Program-made: the position numbers and the translations under genes | Notes under the pieces: generated by a model | What the model saw: only the letters and a program-made list of their open reading frames with translations | What the model was told of the DNA's origin: nothing | The model's database searches: none | Part shown: piece by piece, positions 46,398-56,639 of the stretch | Position numbering within the stretch: the stretch's first letter is position 1 | How the letters are laid out: every line of letters starts with the position of its first letter | From: Exiguobacterium marinum DSM 16307 | GTDB lineage: Bacteria > Bacillota > Bacilli > Exiguobacteriales > Exiguobacteriaceae | DNA length: 64,000 nt | Direction: 5' to 3' | NCBI RefSeq assembly: GCF_000620845.1 | Contig: NZ_KK211189.1 | Coordinates: 1,193,662 to 1,257,661 of the forward strand

Positions 46398-46750
46398 GGG
46401 GACGTTATGGATTCGACGGGGGTAGGTCGGTCGTATGTTGCGTGTCGAGGGGTCGGCCTCGTTAAAACGCAAACGCCTATAACTGGCAAAACTAACACAC
46501 AACTCGCAGCAGCCTAAGTGCCCTGCGGATCCTGACATCCATCGCTTGTGTGGATGACTTTCAGGGTCTCAAACTAAGCAAGCTACGCTTCAACCTCGCC
46601 GTCTGAGGGCGCGAAGAAGAGATGAAACAGACTGGATGCGACGACGCCTGTTTATCGGCAGTGTCACATCGAGATTCAATAGATAAACTACACACGTAGA
46701 AGCATACGTTACGATGCCTTCGGACGCGGGTTCGACTCCCGCCGTCTCCA
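46398..46750 (+). ncRNA. ssrA: tmRNA (ssrA)
   Basis: The tRNA-like ends pair (GGGGACG with CGTCTCC), with the conserved TTATGGATTCGACGGGGGT near the 5' end and GGGTTCGACTCCC in the T-arm. The tag frame 46485-46517 reads GKTNTQLAAA then TAA; with the charged alanine the degradation tag is AGKTNTQLAAA. CCA is not encoded: after the discriminator A comes TTTTG, unlike B. subtilis. The 3' end is the presumed target of the adjacent island, because a degenerate copy of its last 108 nt lies at 54107-54214. Confidence 0.97.
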
Positions 46751-47013: not shown

Positions 47014-47082
47014 TCTGGTGAACGATTGGGTAATTTAGCGACTTCAGATGTTCTGTTATAAGAAGTTTGAGCTAAATGAAGA

Positions 47083-47127
47083 GGGCCATCCGTGCGTATG
47101 TTATGCATGGGTGGCCTTCTTGTTGTT
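47083..47127 (+). terminator. Hairpin after the 47-residue gene
   Basis: GAGGGCCATCC ... GGGTGGCCTTC forms a long stem with an extra pairing GTGC/GCAT inside; the T-tract is interrupted (TTCTTGTTGTTTC). Confidence 0.55.
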
Positions 47128-47149
47128 TCTCCGTTTTCTAATCTGATAC

Positions 47150-47310
47150 GAGTCGATTCTCACAATAAGTTGAAAAATAAGCAACGATTTTATCATTTCC
47201 ATGTTGGAATATGAACAACTCGAGTGCGATTAAAAAGTACCAATCACATGTGTGTCGAACCGCATGAGCCAGCTCATTTATTTTAAAAACAGGTTGCGAT
47301 TCACGAGACA
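47150..47310 (-). pseudogene. Decayed copy of the small membrane-protein gene at 56311-56502
   Basis: The minus strand still reads RFDTHVIGTFLIALELFIFQ followed by HGNDKIVAYF, against RFSTLIIGGLLIALGLFMFQ and DGSDAIVADLF in the intact gene. Alignment runs about 147 nt with two small indels. The upstream part contains an in-frame stop (AAA TAA ATG), and the normal stop after the LFNLW position is lost. The sequence acgagtcga before it also matches the hairpin beside the other copies. Confidence 0.75.
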
Positions 47311-47337
47311 TCTACTTTGAATGTGTAGTGCAAAATA

Positions 47338-49042
47338 GGAGTGGTTCTTACGCAATGTTGGTGAACGATGACGAGCGACCCGCTGAAGGTGGTCGCTCAT
47401 TTTTTTGCAATATCAGTGAGCACAACTCGGATCGGGATTACGACAAAGCACCCGAATCCTGAGCAAGTCAAAACTTCCCCTTCCATACATGAGTCGCTTC
47501 AACATCTTTAGACGGTTGACGTTCCCTTCCACGTAACCGTTGCTTTCTTCAAACCGACAAGCCGCCAGAATCACCTCTATATTTTGTTTGAGTCGACCCA
47601 CGAAGCGCTTCAATCCGGGATGTGATGTGACCTGTGGATTGGTGATCAATGCAAGGAGATGTTCCACGTCCCGTTCCCGAATCGCCTCCCTAAATCCTTG
47701 GATGAAACAGAACGGGATGACCAGGTCTTCGCAACGGACCAACAGGTACGAGACATCGATGGCATCATCCGGCCTGCTCAGAGGCCATTGCCAGAGTAAG
47801 CGACAGACGTCCTTGCGTGATATAAAGACCTGGGGTTCGGGAAGACCCTCCCTCCGAGCGTCACGTGAACGGTAACGGACCGCGCCAAACGAACCTCTGT
47901 AACCTAATTGCCTCAGATAAGCATCCGTTTCCTGGAGTGTGAACCGATTTCGGACACATTCCCTCAAATGTGGCATGAAACGATCAATCAAGTGAGGCTT
48001 TTGTCGTTTCGGCGGGGAGGGTTCGTAAGCCGGATCACTGTATTTTTTGACAGTCCTCCAATTCAAGCCGAGTATCTGGGCGATCGCATTCAGACTCATC
48101 CCTTGGCGGTGCATGCTTTGAACCCTTTCGACCAGCGGTCGTTTCGTTTCTTGCCGAGGTTCGGTCGGGTGTTGCGGTTTCAAACCGTACGATACAGCAC
48201 CTTCCGGATTTATAGGGATTCGAGAGGGGAGGACGCGTTGGCATATCGAGTTGAGGCATCGCCACAGGTTGTCTACGAGGTGGAATCGGTCGCTCACCAC
48301 TACGACGCCCTGGCTGAGCAACGCTTCTTGATAGGCCGGGAAGCGATCGACCGATGCGCGGACAGGTCCTTTCTCCATATTCACAAGCCAATCCGTCAAA
48401 GCGTCAGCTTCGCGGGTCCGGAGCAGGTCGATGGGGCGATGGGTCGTTGCGTCACAGATGATAGTCCCGTACCGATGCCCTTTTTTGAAGGCGAAGTCAT
48501 CAATGCCGATCACCTCGGCACAGGATCTCGGGATGGGCACCCGTCGTAACACCCTGAGCAGCGTGTCGTGACTGATGCGAAAACCCAGGACAGCAGTGAC
48601 ACGCTCGGCTTCCTTCGCACTCATGGCCAACATCAAAGTGGACAACACGCGCTCCGTACGGAGCGTTCTCCGCGAATGAGAAAGAGCCCACGGCAATCGC
48701 TCTGTAAAGATGGAACGTGGGCATCCAGAGTTGTCGCAGAACCATTTCGGGACTTGAACGTGCAATCGGAGCACTTGATGCATTCCTGAGAAGTCTTTTA
48801 GCCGCCGTGTCGCGAAACTGTGACGTCGGTGACAAGACCGACCGCAGTCTGGACAACATCCACCGCTGGAAACGAGACGAGCGGAAAAGTGTCTCACCCC
48901 ATCGTGTGAGTGAGCACTCGTGACGCGCAGTCGATCATCCAAGAATTCTAACTCGTTCATGGGAATCAATCCTTTTTGATTTTATTCCCATAATGTTAGC
49001 ATCACTACCTCACTAACATTGCGTAAGAACCACATTTGTATT
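47338..49042 (-). mobile_element. ISL3-family insertion sequence
   Basis: One transposase gene is framed by inverted repeats: GTGGTTCTTACGCAATGTT at 47341 and its complement ending at 49033. GCAAAATA occurs at 47330-47337 and again at 49043-49050, within a 14-nt direct repeat with one mismatch; this is a candidate 8-bp target duplication, the size usual for ISL3. If so the ends extend a few bases beyond the inverted repeats, which is unusual, so the exact borders are uncertain. Confidence 0.82.
47413..48960 (-). CDS. ISL3-family transposase
   Basis: The 515-residue protein has an N-terminal zinc finger (CCPDCGRSCHRR, then FCDNSGC) and a DDE domain: first Asp in VIGIDDFAFKKGHRYGTI, second in VVSDRFHLVDNL, Glu in SNGYVEGNVNRLK. 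A helix-turn-helix region lies within the domain (GMSLNAIAQILGLNWRTVKKY). All catalytic positions are intact, so it could be active. ATG 48960 follows AAAAGGA; a TTG nine bases earlier is less well placed. Confidence 0.92.
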   Translation of the reverse strand: MNELEFLDDRLRVTSAHSHDGVRHFSARLVSSGGCCPDCGRSCHRRHSFATRRLKDFSGMHQVLRLHVQVPKWFCDNSGCPRSIFTERLPWALSHSRRTLRTERVLSTLMLAMSAKEAERVTAVLGFRISHDTLLRVLRRVPIPRSCAEVIGIDDFAFKKGHRYGTIICDATTHRPIDLLRTREADALTDWLVNMEKGPVRASVDRFPAYQEALLSQGVVVVSDRFHLVDNLWRCLNSICQRVLPSRIPINPEGAVSYGLKPQHPTEPRQETKRPLVERVQSMHRQGMSLNAIAQILGLNWRTVKKYSDPAYEPSPPKRQKPHLIDRFMPHLRECVRNRFTLQETDAYLRQLGYRGSFGAVRYRSRDARREGLPEPQVFISRKDVCRLLWQWPLSRPDDAIDVSYLLVRCEDLVIPFCFIQGFREAIRERDVEHLLALITNPQVTSHPGLKRFVGRLKQNIEVILAACRFEESNGYVEGNVNRLKMLKRLMYGRGSFDLLRIRVLCRNPDPSCAH

Positions 49043-49227
49043 GCAAAATACTCTTTGAAGCCATAACGTCTGGTTATGCCGCCGTCTCTGTTAAAAAAAG
49101 ACGGTGCGTGCCATGTTACAAAAAAATTAAAGTGGGGTATTAAGCTCTTATTTAATTATGATATGCTCCCCAATAGGTAGACAGATGAAATAACAAATCT
49201 GTTTATCTGATTGGGGAGTGTTTTTTT

Positions 49228-49902
49228 ATGGCGAGAAGTCGGCATTCGATTGAACAAAAAATGGCTGCGCTACGTATGATGGAAGAAGAAACATATACAT
49301 GGAAGGAAATTATGGAGGCCCATGACGTCTCTTGGGATACCCTCCAGGTGTGGAAAGTGAAATTCGATACCGGTGGGATCGATGCGTTGAAGGAATCGAA
49401 GACATGGAGACATTACACCAAAGAACAGAAGCTCGCGGCCGTCCGTGACTATCTCGACGGTCTCTCCAAAATGGAAACCCTCTCCAAACACGACATCAGT
49501 AGTTCGTCTGTTCTTTACAGGTGGATTAGGCAGTATACTGGTCATAGCGAGTTAACAGATTCGAGAAAAGGGATGGATCGAGCTATGGCAAAAGGGAGAA
49601 AGACCACATTCGAGGAACGCATGGAGATCGTCAGGTATTGCCTGGACAATGGGCGGAACTATCAACGGACGGCCGAGATGTTCGCCGTGTCGTACCAACA
49701 GGTCTATGGTTGGACGAAAAAATATGACGCCGACGGCGTGCACGGGCTCGAGGACCGGCGTGGACGGACGAAGCAAGAAGAGGAACTGACCAACGAGGAG
49801 AAGCTCGAACGTCGCATCCAACAGATCGAGCGGGAGAACGAGCGCCTGCGGGCCGAGAACCTGTTCCTAAAAAAGTTAGAGGAGATCGAGAGGAGAGGTT
49901 GA
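49228..49902 (+). CDS. IS3-family transposase OrfA
   Basis: The 224-residue DNA-binding subunit has two helix-turn-helix regions (TWKEIMEAHDVSWDTLQVWK; NYQRTAEMFAVSYQQVYGW) and a C-terminal leucine-zipper-like coiled coil (EKLERRIQQIERENERLRAE). Near its end A_AAA_AAG (49869-49875) is an in-frame -1 slippery heptamer. Slippage there enters the orfB frame with no stop and yields an OrfAB transposase; OrfA alone acts as a regulator in this family. Confidence 0.9.
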   Translation: MARSRHSIEQKMAALRMMEEETYTWKEIMEAHDVSWDTLQVWKVKFDTGGIDALKESKTWRHYTKEQKLAAVRDYLDGLSKMETLSKHDISSSSVLYRWIRQYTGHSELTDSRKGMDRAMAKGRKTTFEERMEIVRYCLDNGRNYQRTAEMFAVSYQQVYGWTKKYDADGVHGLEDRRGRTKQEEELTNEEKLERRIQQIERENERLRAENLFLKKLEEIERRG

Positions 49903-50798
49903 TCAGCCAGATCCGGCTACAATTGCGTTACATGGCCATCGAGGAAATGTCGACGACCGATACGTTCTCGGTCGTGCTCCTGTGCGAGATCGCGCAGGTC
50001 TCACGGGCTGCCTACTATAAATGGTTGAAGCGTACCGTCTCGGTACGCGAGGAGGAGAATCTAAGCCTACTAGAGGACATCCGCCTCCTCTACGACCAGG
50101 TGAACGGGATCTACGGTTATCGACGGATCACCATGACGGTCAATCGCAGACGACGCCAGCATGGCCTGCCGGCATACAATGAGAAGTGCATCTATCGTCT
50201 CATGCGCATCCATGAGATCCGTTCGGTCATCCGCCAGAAGAGAAAGCGGTACAAAAAATCGTCACCGCAGCATGTGGCCGAGAACCTGATGAATCGGGAA
50301 TTCAGCGTGTCCCGACCTGACGAGAAATGGTGTACCGACGTCACCGAGTTCAAATTTGGTGCCGGGAAGAAGGCGTATCTGAGCGCGATCATCGACCTGT
50401 ATGACGGCTCGATCGTCGCCTATCGCATCGGGAAGTCTAACAACAACGGGCTCGTCTTCCAAACGATGATGCCAGCGATCGCGGGGCTCCGTACAGGAGC
50501 GAGTCCGATGATCCATAGTGACCGAGGATATCAATACACATCGAAAGGGTTCAAACGCATGGTAGAAGACGCGGGGCTGACCCACAGCATGTCCCGGGTC
50601 GGACGTTGTCTCGACAACGCCCCGATCGAGGGCTTTTGGGGTACCCTGAAAGTCGAGATGTACTACCTGCGTGAGTTTCAGGCCTATAGCGAACTCACAT
50701 CGGCCATCGAGGCCTACATATCGTTCTACAACCACGATCGTTTCCAGAAACGGCTAAACGGCTTGAGCCCTGTCGAATACAGGTCTCAAGCCGCCTAG
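49899..50798 (+). CDS. IS3-family transposase OrfB (DDE integrase domain)
   Basis: The 299-residue catalytic part carries the HTH_21 region and the retroviral-type rve domain. The triad is Asp in EKWCTDVTEFKF, Asp in MIHSDRGYQYTS and Glu in APIEGFWGTLKVEM. All are present. As a stand-alone gene it would begin at TTG 49899, but the functional product is probably made by frameshifting from OrfA. The element looks complete and potentially mobile. Confidence 0.9.
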   Translation: MISQIRLQLRYMAIEEMSTTDTFSVVLLCEIAQVSRAAYYKWLKRTVSVREEENLSLLEDIRLLYDQVNGIYGYRRITMTVNRRRRQHGLPAYNEKCIYRLMRIHEIRSVIRQKRKRYKKSSPQHVAENLMNREFSVSRPDEKWCTDVTEFKFGAGKKAYLSAIIDLYDGSIVAYRIGKSNNNGLVFQTMMPAIAGLRTGASPMIHSDRGYQYTSKGFKRMVEDAGLTHSMSRVGRCLDNAPIEGFWGTLKVEMYYLREFQAYSELTSAIEAYISFYNHDRFQKRLNGLSPVEYRSQAA

Positions 50799-50862
50799 TT
50801 TGGTTTTCATTATTTGCCCTGTCTACTTGACGGGGAGCAGTTCATTATAACTCAGTGTTTTT

Positions 50863-50893
50863 TTGATTATTAATACATAATTAACAATATAAT
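50863..50893 (+). promoter_or_regulatory. Possible promoter for the Septu-like operon
   Basis: TTGATT (50863-50868) and TATAAT (50888-50893) are separated by 19 bp, slightly long. It lies just outside the IS3 right end in A/T-rich DNA. Confidence 0.4.
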
Positions 50894-50994
50894 GAATATA
50901 GCAATACCATATAAAGTCTAAATTTAGTATTATTAATTATGATTTATTTTAATTAATGGTGAAAGTATGTAAAGACAATTAAGGGGGAATTTAA

Positions 50995-52452
50995 ATGGAA
51001 TTTTACGTGAAGGAATATCGAAAGGAATTAACAATTGATATGGTTTATCCTTGTGTAGTTTTAATAACCGATTATTGGGATGATTATAATACTGCTGAAA
51101 CCTTATTTCATATGATGTACTATAAAAATGCAAAAAAAAGTATAAAATTAGGTGAAGTAAAGATTATGCATAATATTGAACCGATTACTCGAAATGTGAT
51201 TCCTTCATCTTTTAAAGAACTAGATGAAGAATTTTGCTCTTTGGGACAAACTCCTGAGTATTATCGTTCATTAAATAAAATTAATAAGAAGAATAGGAAT
51301 AGAATATTAAAGGGGCTAAATGATGCAGCAATCAATCCGTATTTTAAAGAAAAATATAGCAACCATAACTTTTTTAAAAGCTCTCTTATAAGATTTAGTG
51401 AAGCCTCTAAAGCGTTAAAGGATGCTACGAATATTATTAATGGGGTCAGTGTAGAAAATGGTAATTATAAATTTGAATTTTCATGTACTTTAAAAGGATC
51501 AAGTTCTCCACACCATGTTAAATTTGATTTTCAGAAGAATATACTACCTTATAGAATAAATGCATTTGTAGGAAAAAATGCGACAGGGAAAACATCTGTA
51601 CTTAATGAAATTTCAAAATTTATGAGTGGAGTAAATAATAAAAATATACTAAACAATGAAAGACCTCCTTTTAGCAAAATTATTACTATTTCTTATAGTG
51701 CATTCGATGAAATGTATAAGCCATTTGAAGATATTAACATGAAAGATGATTTAGAAAGTAAAGATGATAATAAATTATTCAGCTATATTTATTGTGGTCT
51801 TCGCTCGAAAAATGGAATTCTTAAAATAGAAGAACTGGAAACTAATTTTTGGAGAGCATACGGTAAGATTAAAGAACAGAAAAGACTCAATATATGGATT
51901 AGAATTTTGTCAAACATATTTGAAAAAGATTACTTAGAAGAATTGGAAGAAATAAGCAAACATAAAGTCGGCGGATTCAGTTACAATCTAAGTTCTGGTC
52001 AAAATATATTGTTGTATACGATGTCAGAAGTAATTGCTAATATTCAACCGCAGTCTTTACTGATGTTCGACGAACCAGAAACACACTTACATCCTAACGC
52101 TGTTGCGAATTTAATGAGATTATTTTATGAAATCTTAGAAGAATTTGATTCTTTTGCAATAGTATCTACTCATTCTCCTCTTATAATGCAAGAAATACCA
52201 TCAAGATATGTTCATGTTTTTAATCGGTATGGAAACACAACACTTATAGAAAAACCATATAATGAATTCTTTGGCGAAAACATCAGTAATATAACGAATA
52301 TCTTATTTGAGGTGCAAGAGCACGAAAGTAATTATAAAACCTATTTAAAAAGACTCTTAGATAAAAAATCCTCGGATGAAATTATTGAATTGTTTAATGA
52401 AGAATTAAGTTTTAATGCTCTTACATACCTATCTTCTCTAAACAAGGGGTGA
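50995..52452 (+). CDS. ptuA: Septu-like defence ATPase (PtuA-type, ABC/SMC-like)
   Basis: The 485-residue protein has a RecF/ABC-type ATPase: Walker A GKNATGKT (193-200), signature LSSGQ (332-336), Walker B LLMFDEPETHLHP (about 355-367) and a switch His in STHSP (391-395). Between Walker A and the signature is a 130-residue helical insert. The first 170 residues precede the ATPase and are of unknown fold. An HNH nuclease gene follows 7 nt downstream, the PtuA-PtuB arrangement of the Septu anti-phage system (also the effector pair of retron Ec78). DNA is about 30% GC, unlike the core genome. AAGGGGG lies 8 nt before the ATG. Confidence 0.83.
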   Translation: MEFYVKEYRKELTIDMVYPCVVLITDYWDDYNTAETLFHMMYYKNAKKSIKLGEVKIMHNIEPITRNVIPSSFKELDEEFCSLGQTPEYYRSLNKINKKNRNRILKGLNDAAINPYFKEKYSNHNFFKSSLIRFSEASKALKDATNIINGVSVENGNYKFEFSCTLKGSSSPHHVKFDFQKNILPYRINAFVGKNATGKTSVLNEISKFMSGVNNKNILNNERPPFSKIITISYSAFDEMYKPFEDINMKDDLESKDDNKLFSYIYCGLRSKNGILKIEELETNFWRAYGKIKEQKRLNIWIRILSNIFEKDYLEELEEISKHKVGGFSYNLSSGQNILLYTMSEVIANIQPQSLLMFDEPETHLHPNAVANLMRLFYEILEEFDSFAIVSTHSPLIMQEIPSRYVHVFNRYGNTTLIEKPYNEFFGENISNITNILFEVQEHESNYKTYLKRLLDKKSSDEIIELFNEELSFNALTYLSSLNKG

Positions 52453-52459
52453 AATATTT

Positions 52460-53296
52460 ATGAGAAAATTAGTTTTACCCTCCCTTTCAAGTGATGATAT
52501 TTATACACAAGTTGTTAAGAATTGTAGGGACGCAATTAAGAAAGAAAAGTTGGAAGCAATTAAAAGTGTTGTATTCGAACGTTACAGCCACTATGAAGAT
52601 AATTCTCAAGAATTAAAACATATATCGCAAAGCCCTATTTCACAAGATGATGAAAAAGATTATTTAAAAAGCAATTATTCACGAAATAAAGACGGGTATC
52701 TGGAAGGAGAAGTAGTTTCTGCAATTTTAAAAGCACAGTCCCCGCAGTTAAGAAATACATGTCCTTATTGCGGAATAGATAAACCCAGAACTATAGATCA
52801 TTACCTACCTCAGTCGCTGTTTCCCGAGTATGCTATCTACCCATCAAACTTAATTCCGTGTTGTGGATATTGCAATTCTAAAAAAGGGAAAAGATGGATT
52901 GATGAGGGTAATAGAATGTTTATTAACTTTTATTTTGATGAGCTACCTTATGAAACAATTTTTTTGGAAGTTGAATTTAATTATTTATTGGATGATGAGG
53001 TTCCAAAGATATCGTTTAACCTGACTCAAGAGTCAATTGACAAAGATCAATTTAAACTAATTGAAAGTCATTATTCAAGGTTAGAACTCAAAAATGAGTA
53101 CGCAGCAGAATCGGATGAAGAAATTTCTAATATAAGACAATTAATCGTTGATAGCCCTCACACTTCATTACTTACTCATATCGCTAATTTAGAACGTAAT
53201 TTAAAGGTTTTTGAAAAAAAATACGGAGTTAATTATTGGAAATCAGCTTTGTATAGAGGCATAATAAATAGTGATTTTTTGAATAAAATCAAATAG
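52460..53296 (+). CDS. ptuB: Septu-like HNH endonuclease (PtuB-type)
   Basis: The 278-residue protein has a zinc-stabilised HNH site: CPYC (101-104), IDHYLPQS with H114, PSNLIPCC with N130, and GYCNSKKG (C138, N139). The order of CxxC, His, Asn and CxxCN matches PtuB/TIGR02646-type nucleases. In known systems it is held by PtuA and cuts DNA when the ATPase is triggered by phage infection. The ribosome site AAGGGGTG overlaps the ptuA stop, so the two are coupled. Confidence 0.82.
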   Translation: MRKLVLPSLSSDDIYTQVVKNCRDAIKKEKLEAIKSVVFERYSHYEDNSQELKHISQSPISQDDEKDYLKSNYSRNKDGYLEGEVVSAILKAQSPQLRNTCPYCGIDKPRTIDHYLPQSLFPEYAIYPSNLIPCCGYCNSKKGKRWIDEGNRMFINFYFDELPYETIFLEVEFNYLLDDEVPKISFNLTQESIDKDQFKLIESHYSRLELKNEYAAESDEEISNIRQLIVDSPHTSLLTHIANLERNLKVFEKKYGVNYWKSALYRGIINSDFLNKIK

Positions 53297-53343
53297 TAAT
53301 CAGTTTGAGTGAAATATATTATTTGGAGAGGGAGAATTATCCA

Positions 53344-53742
53344 ATGAATTTTTCACCGTGTACGTTAGAAGAGCTTGAAACTTATGAACCTTTTTTGACG
53401 CTATCTACATGGTCTATGTCTAAGTCATTTTTATATTTTAGACAAGAAGATCAGGAAATGATAAGGCTCGACAAGATAAAGGTTGAAAATGAAGTTGTGG
53501 CTCTTATTGAGTATTCTTTAGGTATGGCTAGTAAAAAGAGTATTTCAATAGATAATTTTGAAGTGTTTCACAAACGAAATGGTATTGGTAGCAAAATAGT
53601 GACTTTTTTGAAAAATACAAATTCAAATTGTATATTTGAGCTATACCCTACAACAGAAATAGCACGTTCTTTTTGGGAAAAGCAGGGATTCAAAGAAGAA
53701 GATGATGGTACTGGAACTGCTATTTTGCGACTTTATAATTAA
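53344..53742 (+). CDS. GNAT-family acetyltransferase, third gene of the Septu-like operon
   Basis: The 132-residue protein has the acetyl-CoA-binding motif KRNGIGSKIVTFLK and the C-terminal FWEKQGFKEEDDGTG typical of GNAT enzymes. ATG 53344 sits about 10 nt after GGAGAGGGAG; a TTG at 53305 would include that site. It lies 47 nt after ptuB and shares its A/T-rich composition, so it probably belongs to the same unit. GNAT is not a standard Septu part, and its substrate is unknown. Confidence 0.75.
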   Translation: MNFSPCTLEELETYEPFLTLSTWSMSKSFLYFRQEDQEMIRLDKIKVENEVVALIEYSLGMASKKSISIDNFEVFHKRNGIGSKIVTFLKNTNSNCIFELYPTTEIARSFWEKQGFKEEDDGTGTAILRLYN

Positions 53743-54008
53743 ACTCTACTATTATTCACGTGATTCACTTTATCCCGGGGGTCTTATATGCAGAATAAAA
53801 TTTTGTGAAATTTTGTCCTCGCTTGTCCGATTTATAATACTAGCAAGAACAACCGGGTGTCGACGTTGATTATCTTTACACGCTCGTAGAACGAAAATCC
53901 GAGCTGCGAATATTCAAGTAAATGACCACATAAATAGGGATACAATTGATTTATCCTTAATACTATGAGATGCAATATGGGTTATTGCAGATTGGTTACC
54001 TAAGACAT
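53743..54008. other. Non-coding stretch with decayed sequence
   Basis: No reading frame of useful length. It contains a short direct repeat (AAAATTTTGTGAAATTTTGT near 53795) and a moderately GC-rich block at 53850-53910, which looks like worn coding DNA but was not recognised. Confidence 0.4.
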
Positions 54009-54048
54009 AAAACGAGTCGAACCTTCCTAATTTAGGTTCGACTCGTTT
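54009..54048. terminator. Bidirectional hairpin, left copy
   Basis: AAAACGAGTCGAACCT pairs with AGGTTCGACTCGTTT. A near-identical hairpin stands at 56225-56264. From 53998 to 54048 the two loci are similar throughout, so this is part of a longer repeat. Confidence 0.8.
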
Positions 54049-54053
54049 ACATT

Positions 54054-54099
54054 GATCTATTCTCACCCCAAGTAAAATAAATCCGCCCACCAACCACAA
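54054..54099 (-). pseudogene. 3' fragment of the small membrane-protein gene
   Basis: The plus strand CTCACCCCAAGTAAAATAA then ATCCGCCCACCA matches CTCACCACAAGTTAAACAA then ATCCGCCACAAT at the 3' end of the gene at 56311-56502. Only the last ~12 codons remain. It lies against the same hairpin as the intact gene, and directly abuts the ssrA-like fragment. Confidence 0.65.
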
Positions 54100-54106
54100 A
54101 TGGGCC

Positions 54107-54214
54107 GGCGCCTAGTTATCGACAGTGGCACATTGAGACTTGATTGATAAACTATACAAGTAGAAGCATGCGTTACGATGACTTCGGAAGCGGTTCTGAC
54201 TCGCTGTTTCTACT
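54107..54214 (+). repeat. Degenerate copy of the ssrA 3' end (att-like remnant)
   Basis: An ungapped alignment of 54107-54214 with 46643-46750 (offset 7464) gives about 83 of 108 identical bases by hand count. Long identical runs include GTAGAAGCAT and CGTTACGATG. It covers the last arm of tmRNA, the T-arm and the acceptor end, which no longer pair. Such copies of tRNA or tmRNA 3' ends mark integration borders of genomic islands. Confidence 0.85.
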
Positions 54215-54291
54215 CTTGTTTTGAATCTTTTAAGTTTACAATAATAGTGATAAATATGATTGAATTTTGGAAAAAAATCTCTGTTATTTTA

Positions 54292-54320
54292 TTGATTTAT
54301 TTCACGATTTGAATTAAAAT
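54292..54320 (+). promoter_or_regulatory. Promoter of the ncRNA upstream of the reverse transcriptase
   Basis: TTGATT (54292-54297), exactly 17 bp, TAAAAT (54315-54320). The start would be near 54327, about 300 nt before the RT gene. Confidence 0.7.
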
Positions 54321-54326
54321 AAACAC

Positions 54327-54602
54327 GTTGTATTCATTTGGGAATGCATAAGGGAAGTTTGACCTTGTCAAGCAAATAATCACTGAGATGGTTCAACGCT
54401 ATATTGCATAGCACCACCACTATCCATGCTGATAACTCGCTGAGCACGGTAAATTCACCCCCTATATCAGTCGATATAATTCGATTATATACTAAATGTT
54501 TCAATAGGGTCCGTAGTGCATTATAGATGTATTATGGTGCATTGCTATTCTTCATGTATGCTTGGGGAGCAAGAACTTGTAATAGGCCCAATTACTGCTC
54601 CC
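54327..54602 (+). ncRNA. Structured ncRNA associated with the reverse transcriptase (DRT2-like)
   Basis: The segment between the promoter and the RT ribosome site carries no plausible gene but a dense series of hairpins. They are 54330-54347 (GTATTC/GAATGC), 54357-54373 (GTTTGAC/GTCAAGC, loop CTT), 54398-54412 (GCTAT/ATAGC), 54460-54509 (CCCTAT/ATAGGG enclosing two alternative stems), 54517-54541 (10 bp, loop ATGTA) and 54565-54602 (GGGAGCA/TGCTCCC stacked on GTAAT/ATTAC). Length about 276 nt matches the ~280-nt ncRNA of the Klebsiella DRT2 system, which serves as template for rolling-circle cDNA synthesis. Ends are estimates. Confidence 0.65.
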
Positions 54603-54629
54603 TCAGCTCTGCAAAAGGAGACTTATTGA

Positions 54630-56024
54630 ATGAAACCACTATCTTATTTTTCACACTATAAATCAAAAAATTACCTCCATTTAGATAAAAAAGTATCTAT
54701 AAGGCATGTTTATGAACAAATTCAGAATCCTGAACTTGTTGGTAAACATGCTTTTTTACCATTTATTCATTATTCATTGAACTTAGAAAAATATACTTTT
54801 AAAGAAGGGATAGATAGAGACAGATTAAAAGAATTTAAAGAGCTTCCCAATTATAATCAAAATGATCATAAGTGCAAAAAACCGAAAAAGAGAGAGATTA
54901 ATTATGCTTCACATTATGATAGCTATATATACAAATACTACGGCGAATTACTAAATGAAAAATACAATGAGTTTATGATTTCTCAAGGAATTGATGAATG
55001 TGCTATAGCATATAGAAATAATAAAAAAGGTAAAAATAATATACACTTTGCTAAAGAGGTTTTTAAGTTCATTTTAGAGCGAGATGAAGCTATTGTTATT
55101 GCTTTAGATTTTTCATCATTTTTCGATAACATTTCACATAAATCATTAAAAGATACTATGAAGCAACTTTTAGAAGTTGAGGAGCTTCCTAGGGATATCT
55201 ATAATGTTTTTAAATCTATAACAAAATATAGAAGTATCGAGAAAGAAGATTTAGATAAGTATTTAGTTGAAAAATATGGCAAAAAGGAACTAGGAAAACT
55301 AATAGATGAAAAGAAAATTCATAGCTATATGGATATTAAAGAGTTTAGACATTTACTAAAAACAAAGCGTTTAAAAGTCAATCCATTGAACTCAAGTAAA
55401 GTTGGAATTCCACAAGGCTCTGGAATAAGTGCTGTCTGTTCAAACATCAGACTAATCAATTTTGATAAAGAAATGTATACCTGGACAGAATCTTTAAATG
55501 GAATTTATCGTCGTTATTGTGATGATTTGATTTGGGTTATACCAAAAACTGAAGACCTATCGATAGAAAAAATTGAAAGCGAAATTTATAAGAAAATAGA
55601 TAGTTATGGAGATTTAATATTACAAAAAGAAAAAACTATCATATTAAGCTATGAAAATAATATTATGTTAAATCGTAATTATCGAAAATCACATTTGGAT
55701 TATCTAGGTTTCTTATTTGATGGGTCTACAATTAAAATAAGAGAAAAAAGTTTGTTTAAGTATTTTAGTCGAGCCTACAAAAAAGTTAGAGTAGTAGCTA
55801 GAGAGCAAATAAAACATAATCGAAATGCCTATATGAAGGATGTATACAGTCTTTATACGCATCTTGGATTTAATTATAAGGGAAGAGGCAACTTTATTAC
55901 TTACGCTCTAAAAGCTCAAAAGTTGATGGAAGATTTACCTGTGAATGTACAGATTAAAAATCAAGTAAAACGTCATTGGAAAAAAATTCACAAAAAGTTA
56001 GATTATTATAAGTCTAATTTTTGA
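54630..56024 (+). CDS. Defence-associated reverse transcriptase, probably DRT2 (UG2) type
   Basis: The 464-residue protein has the RT palm motifs: motif A VIALDFSSFFDNI (D160), motif B GIPQGSGISAVCSN (PQG 261-263) and motif C YRRYCDDLIWV (YCDD 296-299). It has no intron-maturase, HNH or fused nuclease domain, and lacks the extended retron motifs, so it is a stand-alone RT of the unknown-group/Abi clade. YCDD, the size, and a ~280-nt structured upstream ncRNA together point to DRT2, whose RT makes concatenated cDNA that is transcribed into a toxic never-ending ORF after infection. DRT9 or an Abi-type RT are the alternatives. Very A/T-rich, clearly foreign. AAAAGGAG precedes the ATG. Confidence 0.85.
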   Translation: MKPLSYFSHYKSKNYLHLDKKVSIRHVYEQIQNPELVGKHAFLPFIHYSLNLEKYTFKEGIDRDRLKEFKELPNYNQNDHKCKKPKKREINYASHYDSYIYKYYGELLNEKYNEFMISQGIDECAIAYRNNKKGKNNIHFAKEVFKFILERDEAIVIALDFSSFFDNISHKSLKDTMKQLLEVEELPRDIYNVFKSITKYRSIEKEDLDKYLVEKYGKKELGKLIDEKKIHSYMDIKEFRHLLKTKRLKVNPLNSSKVGIPQGSGISAVCSNIRLINFDKEMYTWTESLNGIYRRYCDDLIWVIPKTEDLSIEKIESEIYKKIDSYGDLILQKEKTIILSYENNIMLNRNYRKSHLDYLGFLFDGSTIKIREKSLFKYFSRAYKKVRVVAREQIKHNRNAYMKDVYSLYTHLGFNYKGRGNFITYALKAQKLMEDLPVNVQIKNQVKRHWKKIHKKLDYYKSNF

Positions 56025-56212
56025 TTCATTTAATCATTTAAAAGTAAAAAACTGTGTGGTTTATCAACGGTTCAAATTTTTATTTGGTGCTCAAAATTCT
56101 AACAGTATATAGCGCATATGTGTAAATCAGGATAAGTGACTCGTATGTACAAATTAACCATTATAGTCTCATCTTGCTCGTCAAATACAACAAAATAAGT
56201 CATACAATCTGA
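56025..56212. other. A/T-rich spacer after the reverse transcriptase
   Basis: No gene, repeat or structure was seen before the repeated hairpin region that begins at about 56213. Confidence 0.5.
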
Positions 56213-56224
56213 TATCTAAGCCAA

Positions 56225-56264
56225 AAAACGAGTCGAACCTTAACAATCGGGTTTGACTCGTTTT
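56225..56264. terminator. Bidirectional hairpin, right copy
   Basis: AAAACGAGTCGAACC pairs with GGGTTTGACTCGTTTT. It can terminate both the RT gene (plus) and the small membrane gene (minus). It matches the hairpin at 54009-54048. Confidence 0.82.
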
Positions 56265-56310
56265 CATTTCAAGAGTAATCAGGCATGAAATGAATGCGGT
56301 GATGTAATCC

Positions 56311-56502
56311 TCACCACAAGTTAAACAAATCCGCCACAATCGCATCACTTCCGTCTTGAAACATGAACAAGCCGAGTGCGATTAACAAACCTCCGATGAT
56401 GAGTGTGCTGAACCGCGTCAGTCCGTTAGTGTTCTTTTTGAATAGGCCGCGAATTACGAGCGCTCCACCGATCAATAGCATCAAGAAATACCAAAACCCC
56501 AT
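56311..56502 (-). CDS. Small two-segment membrane protein, unknown
   Basis: The 63-residue protein starts MGFWYFLMLLIGGALVIRG and has a second hydrophobic stretch (STLIIGGLLIALGLFMF), with a short KKNTNG loop between. The ribosome site is GGAGGAGGAAGG. It is the intact member of three copies in this window, the others being a decayed copy at 47150-47310 and a 3' fragment at 54054-54099. It probably belongs to the core genome at the island's right edge. Function unknown. Confidence 0.7.
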   Translation of the reverse strand: MGFWYFLMLLIGGALVIRGLFKKNTNGLTRFSTLIIGGLLIALGLFMFQDGSDAIVADLFNLW

Positions 56503-56639
56503 AGCCCTTCCTCCTCCGCTTATAGTTGAGTTTAGTTTACAAATATTTCCGAGCGCATACTGTAGGGCGCAGGACTGATTTAATCTCAGCCCAAGAAGGG
56601 TACATTACCTCTATGTGAAAATGAAGGGGAGTGACCATT

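What the first reader, a model, noticed from the sequence alone, without database searches (positions are those of the whole stretch)
54292..56024. Complete DRT2-like cassette: promoter, structured ncRNA and YCDD reverse transcriptase
Seen: a stand-alone RT with motifs DFSSFFDN, PQG and YCDD and no fused domain. It is preceded by a 17-bp-spaced promoter and about 276 nt of hairpin-rich DNA that ends just before the RT ribosome site. Known: DRT2 systems pair a UG2 RT with a ~280-nt upstream ncRNA, which is reverse transcribed by rolling circle into repeats encoding a toxic endless ORF (neo). Inference: this is a Bacillales DRT2 (or close relative) and a functional anti-phage system.
Basis: partly seen in the sequence, partly recalled or inferred. 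Interest (0 to 1): 0.87.

Follow-up and report, generated by a model that had tools for sequence, protein, structure and literature searches.

The report
Phage-defence enzyme with hidden repeat gene
This piece of an Exiguobacterium-family genome carries a bacterial anti-phage reverse transcriptase (DRT2) next to a structured RNA, and that RNA appears to hold the backwards template of a repetitive, stop-free gene that could be read only after it has been copied into tandem DNA repeats.

Summary
Confirmed and extended. The ORF at 54630-56024 is an intact Drt2 (UG2) reverse transcriptase (PADLOC Drt2 466 bits, next non-Drt2 family 63), about 33% identical to KpnDRT2. The ~285 nt upstream are a conserved RNA with covarying helices and a pseudoknot. 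It is the only such unit in the window. Calling units from promoter geometry plus a short repeat, without any coding criterion, in 78 non-redundant DRT2 loci gave 50 antisense calls, 48 divisible by three, all 48 stop-free; the sense strand gave 5, 1 and 0. The jump motif is GTTT, not the published ACA, and motifs largely follow RT clades. The cassette sits in a variable, defence-rich locus beside tmRNA. Transcription, cDNA synthesis, Neo toxicity and phage defence are inferred from KpnDRT2, not shown here.

The parts
54292..54320 (+). putative promoter of the ncRNA-RT unit (TTGATT-17-TAAAAT)
   Evidence: 9 of 12 matches, not above chance alone; TAAAAT recurs in L036 and L002
54327..54611 (+). 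predicted DRT2 ncRNA, about 285 nt (both ends predicted)
   Evidence: fold z -3.1; covarying helices; scaffold model hits
54329..54348 (+). 5' handle hairpin (54329-54335 with 54342-54348)
   Evidence: helix of the consensus fold of 13 sequences, 7 of its 8 pairs with changes on both sides
54357..54497 (-). template of the 141-nt neo repeat unit (neo reads on the minus strand); 47 aa per repeat
   Evidence: stop-free in one frame through the junction; only such unit in the window
54357..54360 (+). junction repeat GTTT, copy 1 (end of copying; cDNA AAAC)
54498..54501 (+). junction repeat GTTT, copy 2 (where the cDNA end would re-pair)
   Evidence: same motif in 13 close loci
54366..54371 (-). 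-35 box TTGACA of the promoter formed at the repeat junction
54484..54489 (-). -10 box TATAAT of the promoter formed at the repeat junction; 17 bp from the -35 only in the concatemer
54455..54463 (-). Shine-Dalgarno AGGGGGTGA of neo
   Evidence: a Shine-Dalgarno pattern is found there in 9 of 13 close loci
54445..54447 (-). in-frame GTG, predicted neo start codon
54506..54511 (+). pseudoknot helix, 5' arm (54507-54511 pair; A54506 faces A54590, unpaired)
54585..54590 (+). pseudoknot helix, 3' arm
54513..54545 (+). 14-bp hairpin, candidate 'tower'
   Evidence: the match to the KpnDRT2 tower is by position and length only
54560..54607 (+). terminal helix (54560-54568 with 54599-54607) enclosing the pseudoknot 3' arm
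54630..56024 (+). Drt2 (UG2) reverse transcriptase, 464 aa

Best explanation
A two-part DRT2 defence cassette: an RT and the ncRNA upstream of it. Proposed working: the ncRNA binds the RT through its 5' hairpin and its pseudoknotted 3' scaffold. On phage infection the RT copies the 141-nt template; when it reaches GTTT at 54357 the end of the nascent cDNA (AAAC) re-pairs with GTTT at 54498 and the template is copied again, giving tandem repeats that become double-stranded. Only in the concatemer do TTGACA and TATAAT stand 17 bp apart, so an mRNA antisense to the ncRNA is made, whose stop-free frame is translated from GTG behind AGGGGGTGA into a repetitive Neo protein (47 aa per repeat, 26 of 47 residues hydrophobic) that arrests the cell. 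Shown from sequence: RT identity, conserved RNA structure, junction repeat, junction promoter, stop-free frame, start signals, conservation. Inferred from KpnDRT2: RNA binding, repeat synthesis, second strand, transcription, translation, toxicity, phage trigger.
For: Drt2 profile 466.4 and 325.8 bits against 62.9 for the next family; DRT2 chains in the PDB down to 4.6e-58. Exact 17-bp junction promoter, GTTT repeat and stop-free 141-nt unit; exact configuration in 6 of 3000 shuffles; only such unit in 64 kb, both strands. Units called without coding criteria in 78 loci: antisense 50 called, 48 divisible by three, 48 stop-free; sense 5, 1, 0. The same GTTT junction in 13 loci, and in a five-member subclade a one-base shift on each side that keeps the sum at 17. 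Positive controls: two E. coli drt2 loci give 117-nt ACA units, stop-free. RNA: 12 of 19 predicted pairs with changes on both sides; pseudoknot 77 of 78 pairs against 21-39 when slid; scaffold model finds 13 untrained loci just before their RTs. Defence-rich neighbourhood.
Against: NCBIfam Drt2 score 378.1 is below its cut-off of 390. 28 of 78 loci give no strict call, and 2 of 50 calls are not divisible by three; with 3-nt repeats 18 of 79 have none and 4 of 79 are not divisible. Looser settings are met by chance: 590 of 3000 shuffles with one mismatch per box and a 3-nt repeat; 61 repeat-bounded stop-free pieces exist in the region. Control stretches of the same loci gave 23 calls in 452 strands, 9 divisible by three, 8 of these stop-free. 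E. coli controls are called only when the repeat may be 3 nt. Codon-position bias in Neo between close pairs is weak (35/25/35; 24 synonymous, 52 non-synonymous codons in 7 pairs). A Shine-Dalgarno pattern was found in 9 of 13 close loci, not all. The genomic promoter is not above chance. No expression data.
Confidence: 0.88

Rival explanations
1. A DRT2 that makes the same tandem cDNA, but whose effector is the nucleic acid itself rather than a translated Neo protein (as in DRT9, where the product is poly-dA).
For: Codon-level selection in Neo is weak; DRT9 and DRT10 make non-coding repetitive cDNA (passages of PMC12632851).
Against: 48 of 50 geometry-only units are divisible by three and all 48 are stop-free; Shine-Dalgarno and in-frame start in the window and a Shine-Dalgarno pattern in 9 of 13 close loci. 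In KpnDRT2 stop codons abolish defence and synonymous codons do not (PMC12039810 passages).
Confidence: 0.06
2. A DRT2 cassette that was functional in its lineage but is silent or damaged in this genome.
For: It is found in 1 of 19 genomes of the genus searched, lies in a locus full of IS elements and duplications, and its promoter is weak.
Against: The RT is full length with intact motifs, the junction promoter is a perfect 12 of 12 and the frame is open, and the pseudoknot pairs in 5 of 6 positions.
Confidence: 0.05
3. The RT belongs to another UG/Abi class, and the upstream DNA is an ordinary leader without a coding template.
For: NCBIfam score just under the cut-off; weak matches to RT_UG17 (58.9 bits), Drt9 (58.4) and group II maturase (74.6).
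Against: About 400 bits separate Drt2 from the next family; the leader covaries and is conserved; units of this kind are rare in control DNA.
Confidence: 0.01

Closest known systems
KpnDRT2 of Klebsiella pneumoniae (Wilkinson et al. 2024, PMC12039810; Tang et al. 2024 preprint, PMC11100668; PDB 9c0i and others)
   Same: Drt2 RT; ncRNA upstream; 5' handle, hairpin and pseudoknot 3' of the template; antisense stop-free unit divisible by three; -35 and -10 joined at 17 bp across the repeat junction; Shine-Dalgarno and start codon downstream.
   Different: RT about 33% identical; unit of 141 nt instead of 120; junction motif GTTT instead of ACA; host in a Gram-positive lineage; Neo sequence different.
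E. coli DRT2 (L092, L093; annotated drt2 in RefSeq)
   Same: The same test finds 117-nt antisense stop-free units with the junction promoter.
   Different: Junction ACA, 117 nt; RT 59-60% identical to KpnDRT2 and 33-34% to the window RT.
Closest relatives of the window system: L036 (Ureibacillus aquaedulcis) and L002 (same family as the window)
   Same: RT 63% and 60% identical; GTTT junction, 141 and 135 nt, similar Neo repeats, Shine-Dalgarno and in-frame ATG.
   Different: L002 has a -10 of TGTAAT and an 8-nt junction repeat; I found no name or description of these systems in the papers searched.
DRT9 (UG28) and DRT10 (UG17)
   Same: Class 2 UG RTs that make repetitive cDNA from an adjacent ncRNA (passages of PMC12632851).
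   Different: PADLOC 58.4 (Drt9) and 58.9 (RT_UG17) bits against 466.4 for Drt2; here the template is long and open for translation.

Membership tests
DRT2 (UG2) | RT matches the Drt2 profile far better than other RT classes | tested here: met
   PADLOC Drt2 466.4 and 325.8 bits, next family 62.9; PDB DRT2 chains to 4.6e-58
DRT2 (UG2) | NCBIfam NF041746 Drt2 equivalog cut-off (390 bits) | tested here: not met
   378.1 bits over 416 of 416 model positions, best family by far but under the cut-off
DRT2 (UG2) | intact RT active site (YxDD) | tested here: met
   YCDD and DFSSFFDN present, catalytic Asp invariant in 5 homologs
DRT2 (UG2) | structured, pseudoknotted ncRNA of about 280 nt just upstream | tested here: met
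   covariation and scaffold model; its transcription was not testable
DRT2 (UG2) | antisense repeat unit divisible by three with one stop-free frame across the junction | tested here: met
   141 nt, one frame of three; 48 of 78 loci by strict call
DRT2 (UG2) | -35 and -10 brought to 17 bp by repeat junction, followed by ribosome site and start | tested here: met
   TTGACA-17-TATAAT, AGGGGGTGA, in-frame GTG
DRT2 close to KpnDRT2 | template bounded by two ACA motifs | tested here: not met
   the repeat is GTTT in the window and its close relatives; E. coli controls do show ACA
DRT2 (UG2) | concatemeric cDNA on phage infection, Neo toxicity, abortive infection | not testable with these tools
   needs cells and phage
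DRT9 (UG28) | RT of the Drt9 profile | tested here: not met
   58.4 bits against 466.4 for Drt2
Abi-P2 | RT of the AbiP2 profile | tested here: inconclusive
   no AbiP2 model among the best 25 of 40 families shown; 15 weaker ones, ranked after E 1.6e-7, were not displayed

The most novel reading that the evidence does not exclude
Neo synthesis is the general mechanism of DRT2 well beyond the KpnDRT2 group. Over much of Bacillota the template-jump motif has changed clade by clade (GTTT, GTATT, GTGAA, ATTG, TATT; ACA in the enteric group) while the 17-bp junction promoter and divisibility by three are kept, so these hidden repetitive genes can be read from genome sequence alone. The window is a complete example of the GTTT clade.
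Probability: 0.75. Interest if true: 0.75.

Novelty: new variant of a known kind. Interest (0 to 1): 0.62.

Why it matters
The preprint that described neo says that ncRNAs could be predicted in more divergent DRT2 clades but that Neo annotation there was 'more challenging', leaving open other mechanisms (PMC11100668, section 10). A rule that uses only the junction promoter and a short direct repeat finds stop-free units in 48 of 78 mostly Bacillota loci and names a junction motif per clade. That makes the question directly testable in Gram-positive bacteria, with a concrete 141-nt prediction. Five literature searches listed no paper whose title or abstract start reports GTTT-type junctions or a Gram-positive Neo; the final journal version of Tang et al. 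was not in the library listings and supplements could not be opened, so this is not proof that it is unpublished.

Tried and rejected
Stop-free pieces bounded by any 3-nt repeat: 61 candidates, not discriminating; replaced by promoter geometry. One mismatch per box with 3-nt repeats: 590 of 3000 shuffles pass, so claims rest on strict calls. Codon-level selection in Neo: weak, not used as support. Rfam at gathering thresholds: only tmRNA and tRNA in the window. The scaffold covariance model does not reach the E. coli or ATTG-clade loci at E 1, so beyond the GTTT and GTGAA-type clades RNA homology rests on architecture. Viral contigs: no relative with the single protein, one (L091) with the alignment. 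Genus and order searches for relatives: 1 of 19 and 3 of 38 genomes, the window's own included. A first pseudoknot script chose wrong arms in L036 and in the window copy L001, corrected. A small alignment of the 5' hairpin was uninformative because of badly chosen ends. The three GTTT-clade loci without a strict call (L011, L012, L077) do have stop-free GTTT units of 123, 123 and 171 nt, but weak boxes. Structure prediction and fold search were not run, because solved DRT2 chains already match by sequence.

Considered and rejected: another UG/Abi class (scores), ordinary leader (covariation), chance unit.

Full report
Observation. The ORF at 54630-56024 (464 aa) has DFSSFFDN, IPQG and YCDD. 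PADLOC gives Drt2 466.4 bits (3.2e-140), a second Drt2 model 325.8, then a general RT model with 62.9 (25 of 40 matching families shown). NCBIfam Drt2 gives 378.1 bits, under its cut-off of 390. phmmer against the PDB finds three distinct sequences at E 0.001 or better, two named Drt2 and the third, of nearly the same sequence, named RNA-dependent DNA polymerase. Pfam sees RVT_1 alone. The upstream sigma-70-like site exists, but with 9 of 12 matches it is no better than shuffles.

The hidden gene. In KpnDRT2 the neo unit is antisense to the ncRNA, divisible by three, stop-free across repeats, and -35 and -10 come to 17 bp only across the repeat junction (PMC12039810: abstract, passages and part 1 of section 9. 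PMC11100668: abstract, passages and section 10). In the window the antisense strand holds TTGACA (54371-54366) and TATAAT (54489-54484) in the wrong order. Joining at the direct repeat GTTT (54357-54360 and 54498-54501, 141 nt apart) brings them to exactly 17 bp, and one of three frames is stop-free through the junction. AGGGGGTGA follows, and an in-frame GTG begins 42 nt after the start of the -10. The repeat reads LVYNRIISTDIGGEFTVLSELSAWIVVVLCNIALNHLSDYLLDKVKH. In 3000 dinucleotide shuffles of the region, 6 had an exact configuration on either strand; with one mismatch allowed per box, 590 did. In the whole window, both strands, two units pass the box rule with a junction repeat of at least 4 nt, one is divisible by three and stop-free, and it is this one.

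Relatives. The one genome-contig scan confirmed 111 relatives, of which the best 80 were kept. With L001-L010 and L091 this made 91 loci. Two had too little upstream sequence (L041, L047), leaving 89; 11 near-duplicates were removed, leaving 78. Units were called with no coding criterion (boxes 11 of 12 or better, spacer 17, repeat of 4 nt or more): antisense 50 of 78, 48 of the 50 divisible by three, all 48 stop-free in at least one frame; sense strand 5, 1, 0. The two exceptions are L039 (76 nt; a 135-nt unit also exists) and L058 (113 nt). Control stretches of the same loci gave 23 calls in 452 strand-sequences, 9 divisible by three, 8 of them stop-free; 6 of the 8 lie in RT coding sequence, where a frame is open anyway. 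Two E. coli drt2 loci give 117-nt ACA units, stop-free, if a 3-nt repeat is allowed; with 4 nt they are not called. PMC12039810 reports 117 nt as the commonest length among 42 close KpnDRT2 homologs.

Junction motif. In the RT tree (80 sequences, FastTree, midpoint root) the window groups with L036 and L002 (support 1.0), in a clade whose called junctions are GTTT; other clades have GTATT, GTGAA, ATTG or TATT, and the enteric controls ACA, with exceptions within clades. The clade is Bacillota by record titles, except L014, titled a Lutibacter MAG. Of 79 loci labelled there, 57 have a unit divisible by three (3-nt repeat allowed), 4 a unit that is not, and 18 none. The window's clade mates L011, L012 and L077 lack a strict call but have stop-free GTTT units. 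In five members of one subclade (L003, L016-L019) the -10 is one base nearer to the junction and the -35 one base further, so the sum stays 17. KpnDRT2 and E. coli DRT2 sit on another branch, 33-34% identical to the window RT.

RNA. RNAalifold on 13 relatives predicts 19 pairs, in the 5' hairpin and the terminal helix, 12 with changes on both sides. A pseudoknot helix, 54506-54511 with 54585-54590, forms 77 of 78 possible pairs in 13 sequences, and 21 to 39 when slid by 1 to 3; the one failure is A54506-A54590 of the window. On alignment A4, where that cell is a gap, the helix is paired in every cell with letters and 4 of 6 pairs have changes on both sides; with the terminal helix (93% paired) the structure beats all 500 shuffles on four of five measures, and 4 of 500 reach it on the fifth. 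A covariance model of the scaffold was searched over 67 sources, of which only the window was in training: 13 other loci match at E 0.01 or better, each just upstream of its RT match (L023 overlaps its first 20 nt); the window has only the expected hit; the E. coli loci have none.

Context. Both flanks (tmRNA side and the epimerase-like gene at 56631) are conserved in the 12 congeneric stretches fetched, of 18 other genomes in the genus search, but the DNA between differs or aligns only in short pieces. Of ten proteins picked from these variable parts, 8 match PADLOC models at 1e-10, among them Gabija GajA in two genomes, GajB in one, and Hachiman HamB. A copy of the tmRNA 3' end (103 nt, 81%) lies at 54100-54202, just before the cassette, and a terminator with the end of a small gene is duplicated on both sides of it, which suggests insertion at a tmRNA attachment site (inference). 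Upstream lies a PDC-M01A/B pair (AAA ATPase and HNH) related to Septu PtuA. The host is placed in the Exiguobacterium family because L003, from the window's family, has a near-duplicate, L025, titled Exiguobacterium.

Conclusion. By sequence this is a DRT2 with every architectural feature that could be tested except the ACA motif, which its clade replaces by GTTT, and except the NCBIfam cut-off, which it misses by 12 bits. Rolling-circle copying, Neo translation, toxicity and defence are inferred from KpnDRT2.

Noticed in passing
window 47020-56593: Variable locus between tmRNA and an epimerase-like gene: flanks conserved in 12 of 12 congeneric stretches fetched, contents different, with Gabija, Hachiman and other PADLOC matches in relatives. 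A defence hotspot of the genus.
   Followed up: partly
window 46636-46738 and 54100-54202: 103-nt partial copy of the tmRNA 3' end (81%), an attachment-site-like duplication directly upstream of the DRT2 cassette.
   Followed up: partly
window 53997-54087 and 56213-56335: Terminator-like hairpin and the end of a small minus-strand gene duplicated on both sides of DRT2 (86-90% over two 29-nt blocks); no recombinase was seen between them.
   Followed up: no
window 50995-53296: Candidate defence pair PDC-M01A/PDC-M01B (AAA ATPase 553 bits, HNH 268 bits), related to Septu PtuA (226 bits). The ORF after it, 53305-53742, matches no PADLOC, Pfam or NCBIfam family at 0.001.
   Followed up: partly
window 47329-50798: An ISL3-family transposase with inverted repeats (47329-47364/49010-49045) and a two-ORF transposase with rve and HTH domains at 49228-50798.
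   Followed up: no
L086 and L087; also L076, L085: Bacteroidota DRT2 loci give no strict junction-promoter call, yet L086 has a 13-nt direct repeat 132 nt apart bounding a stop-free antisense unit, and L087 a 6-nt repeat at 150 nt. They may use another promoter consensus.
   Followed up: no
L004, RT match at about 1501-2823: This GTTT-clade relative has a TAA inside its RT match but keeps a stop-free 153-nt unit; perhaps a recent loss or a sequencing error.
   Followed up: no
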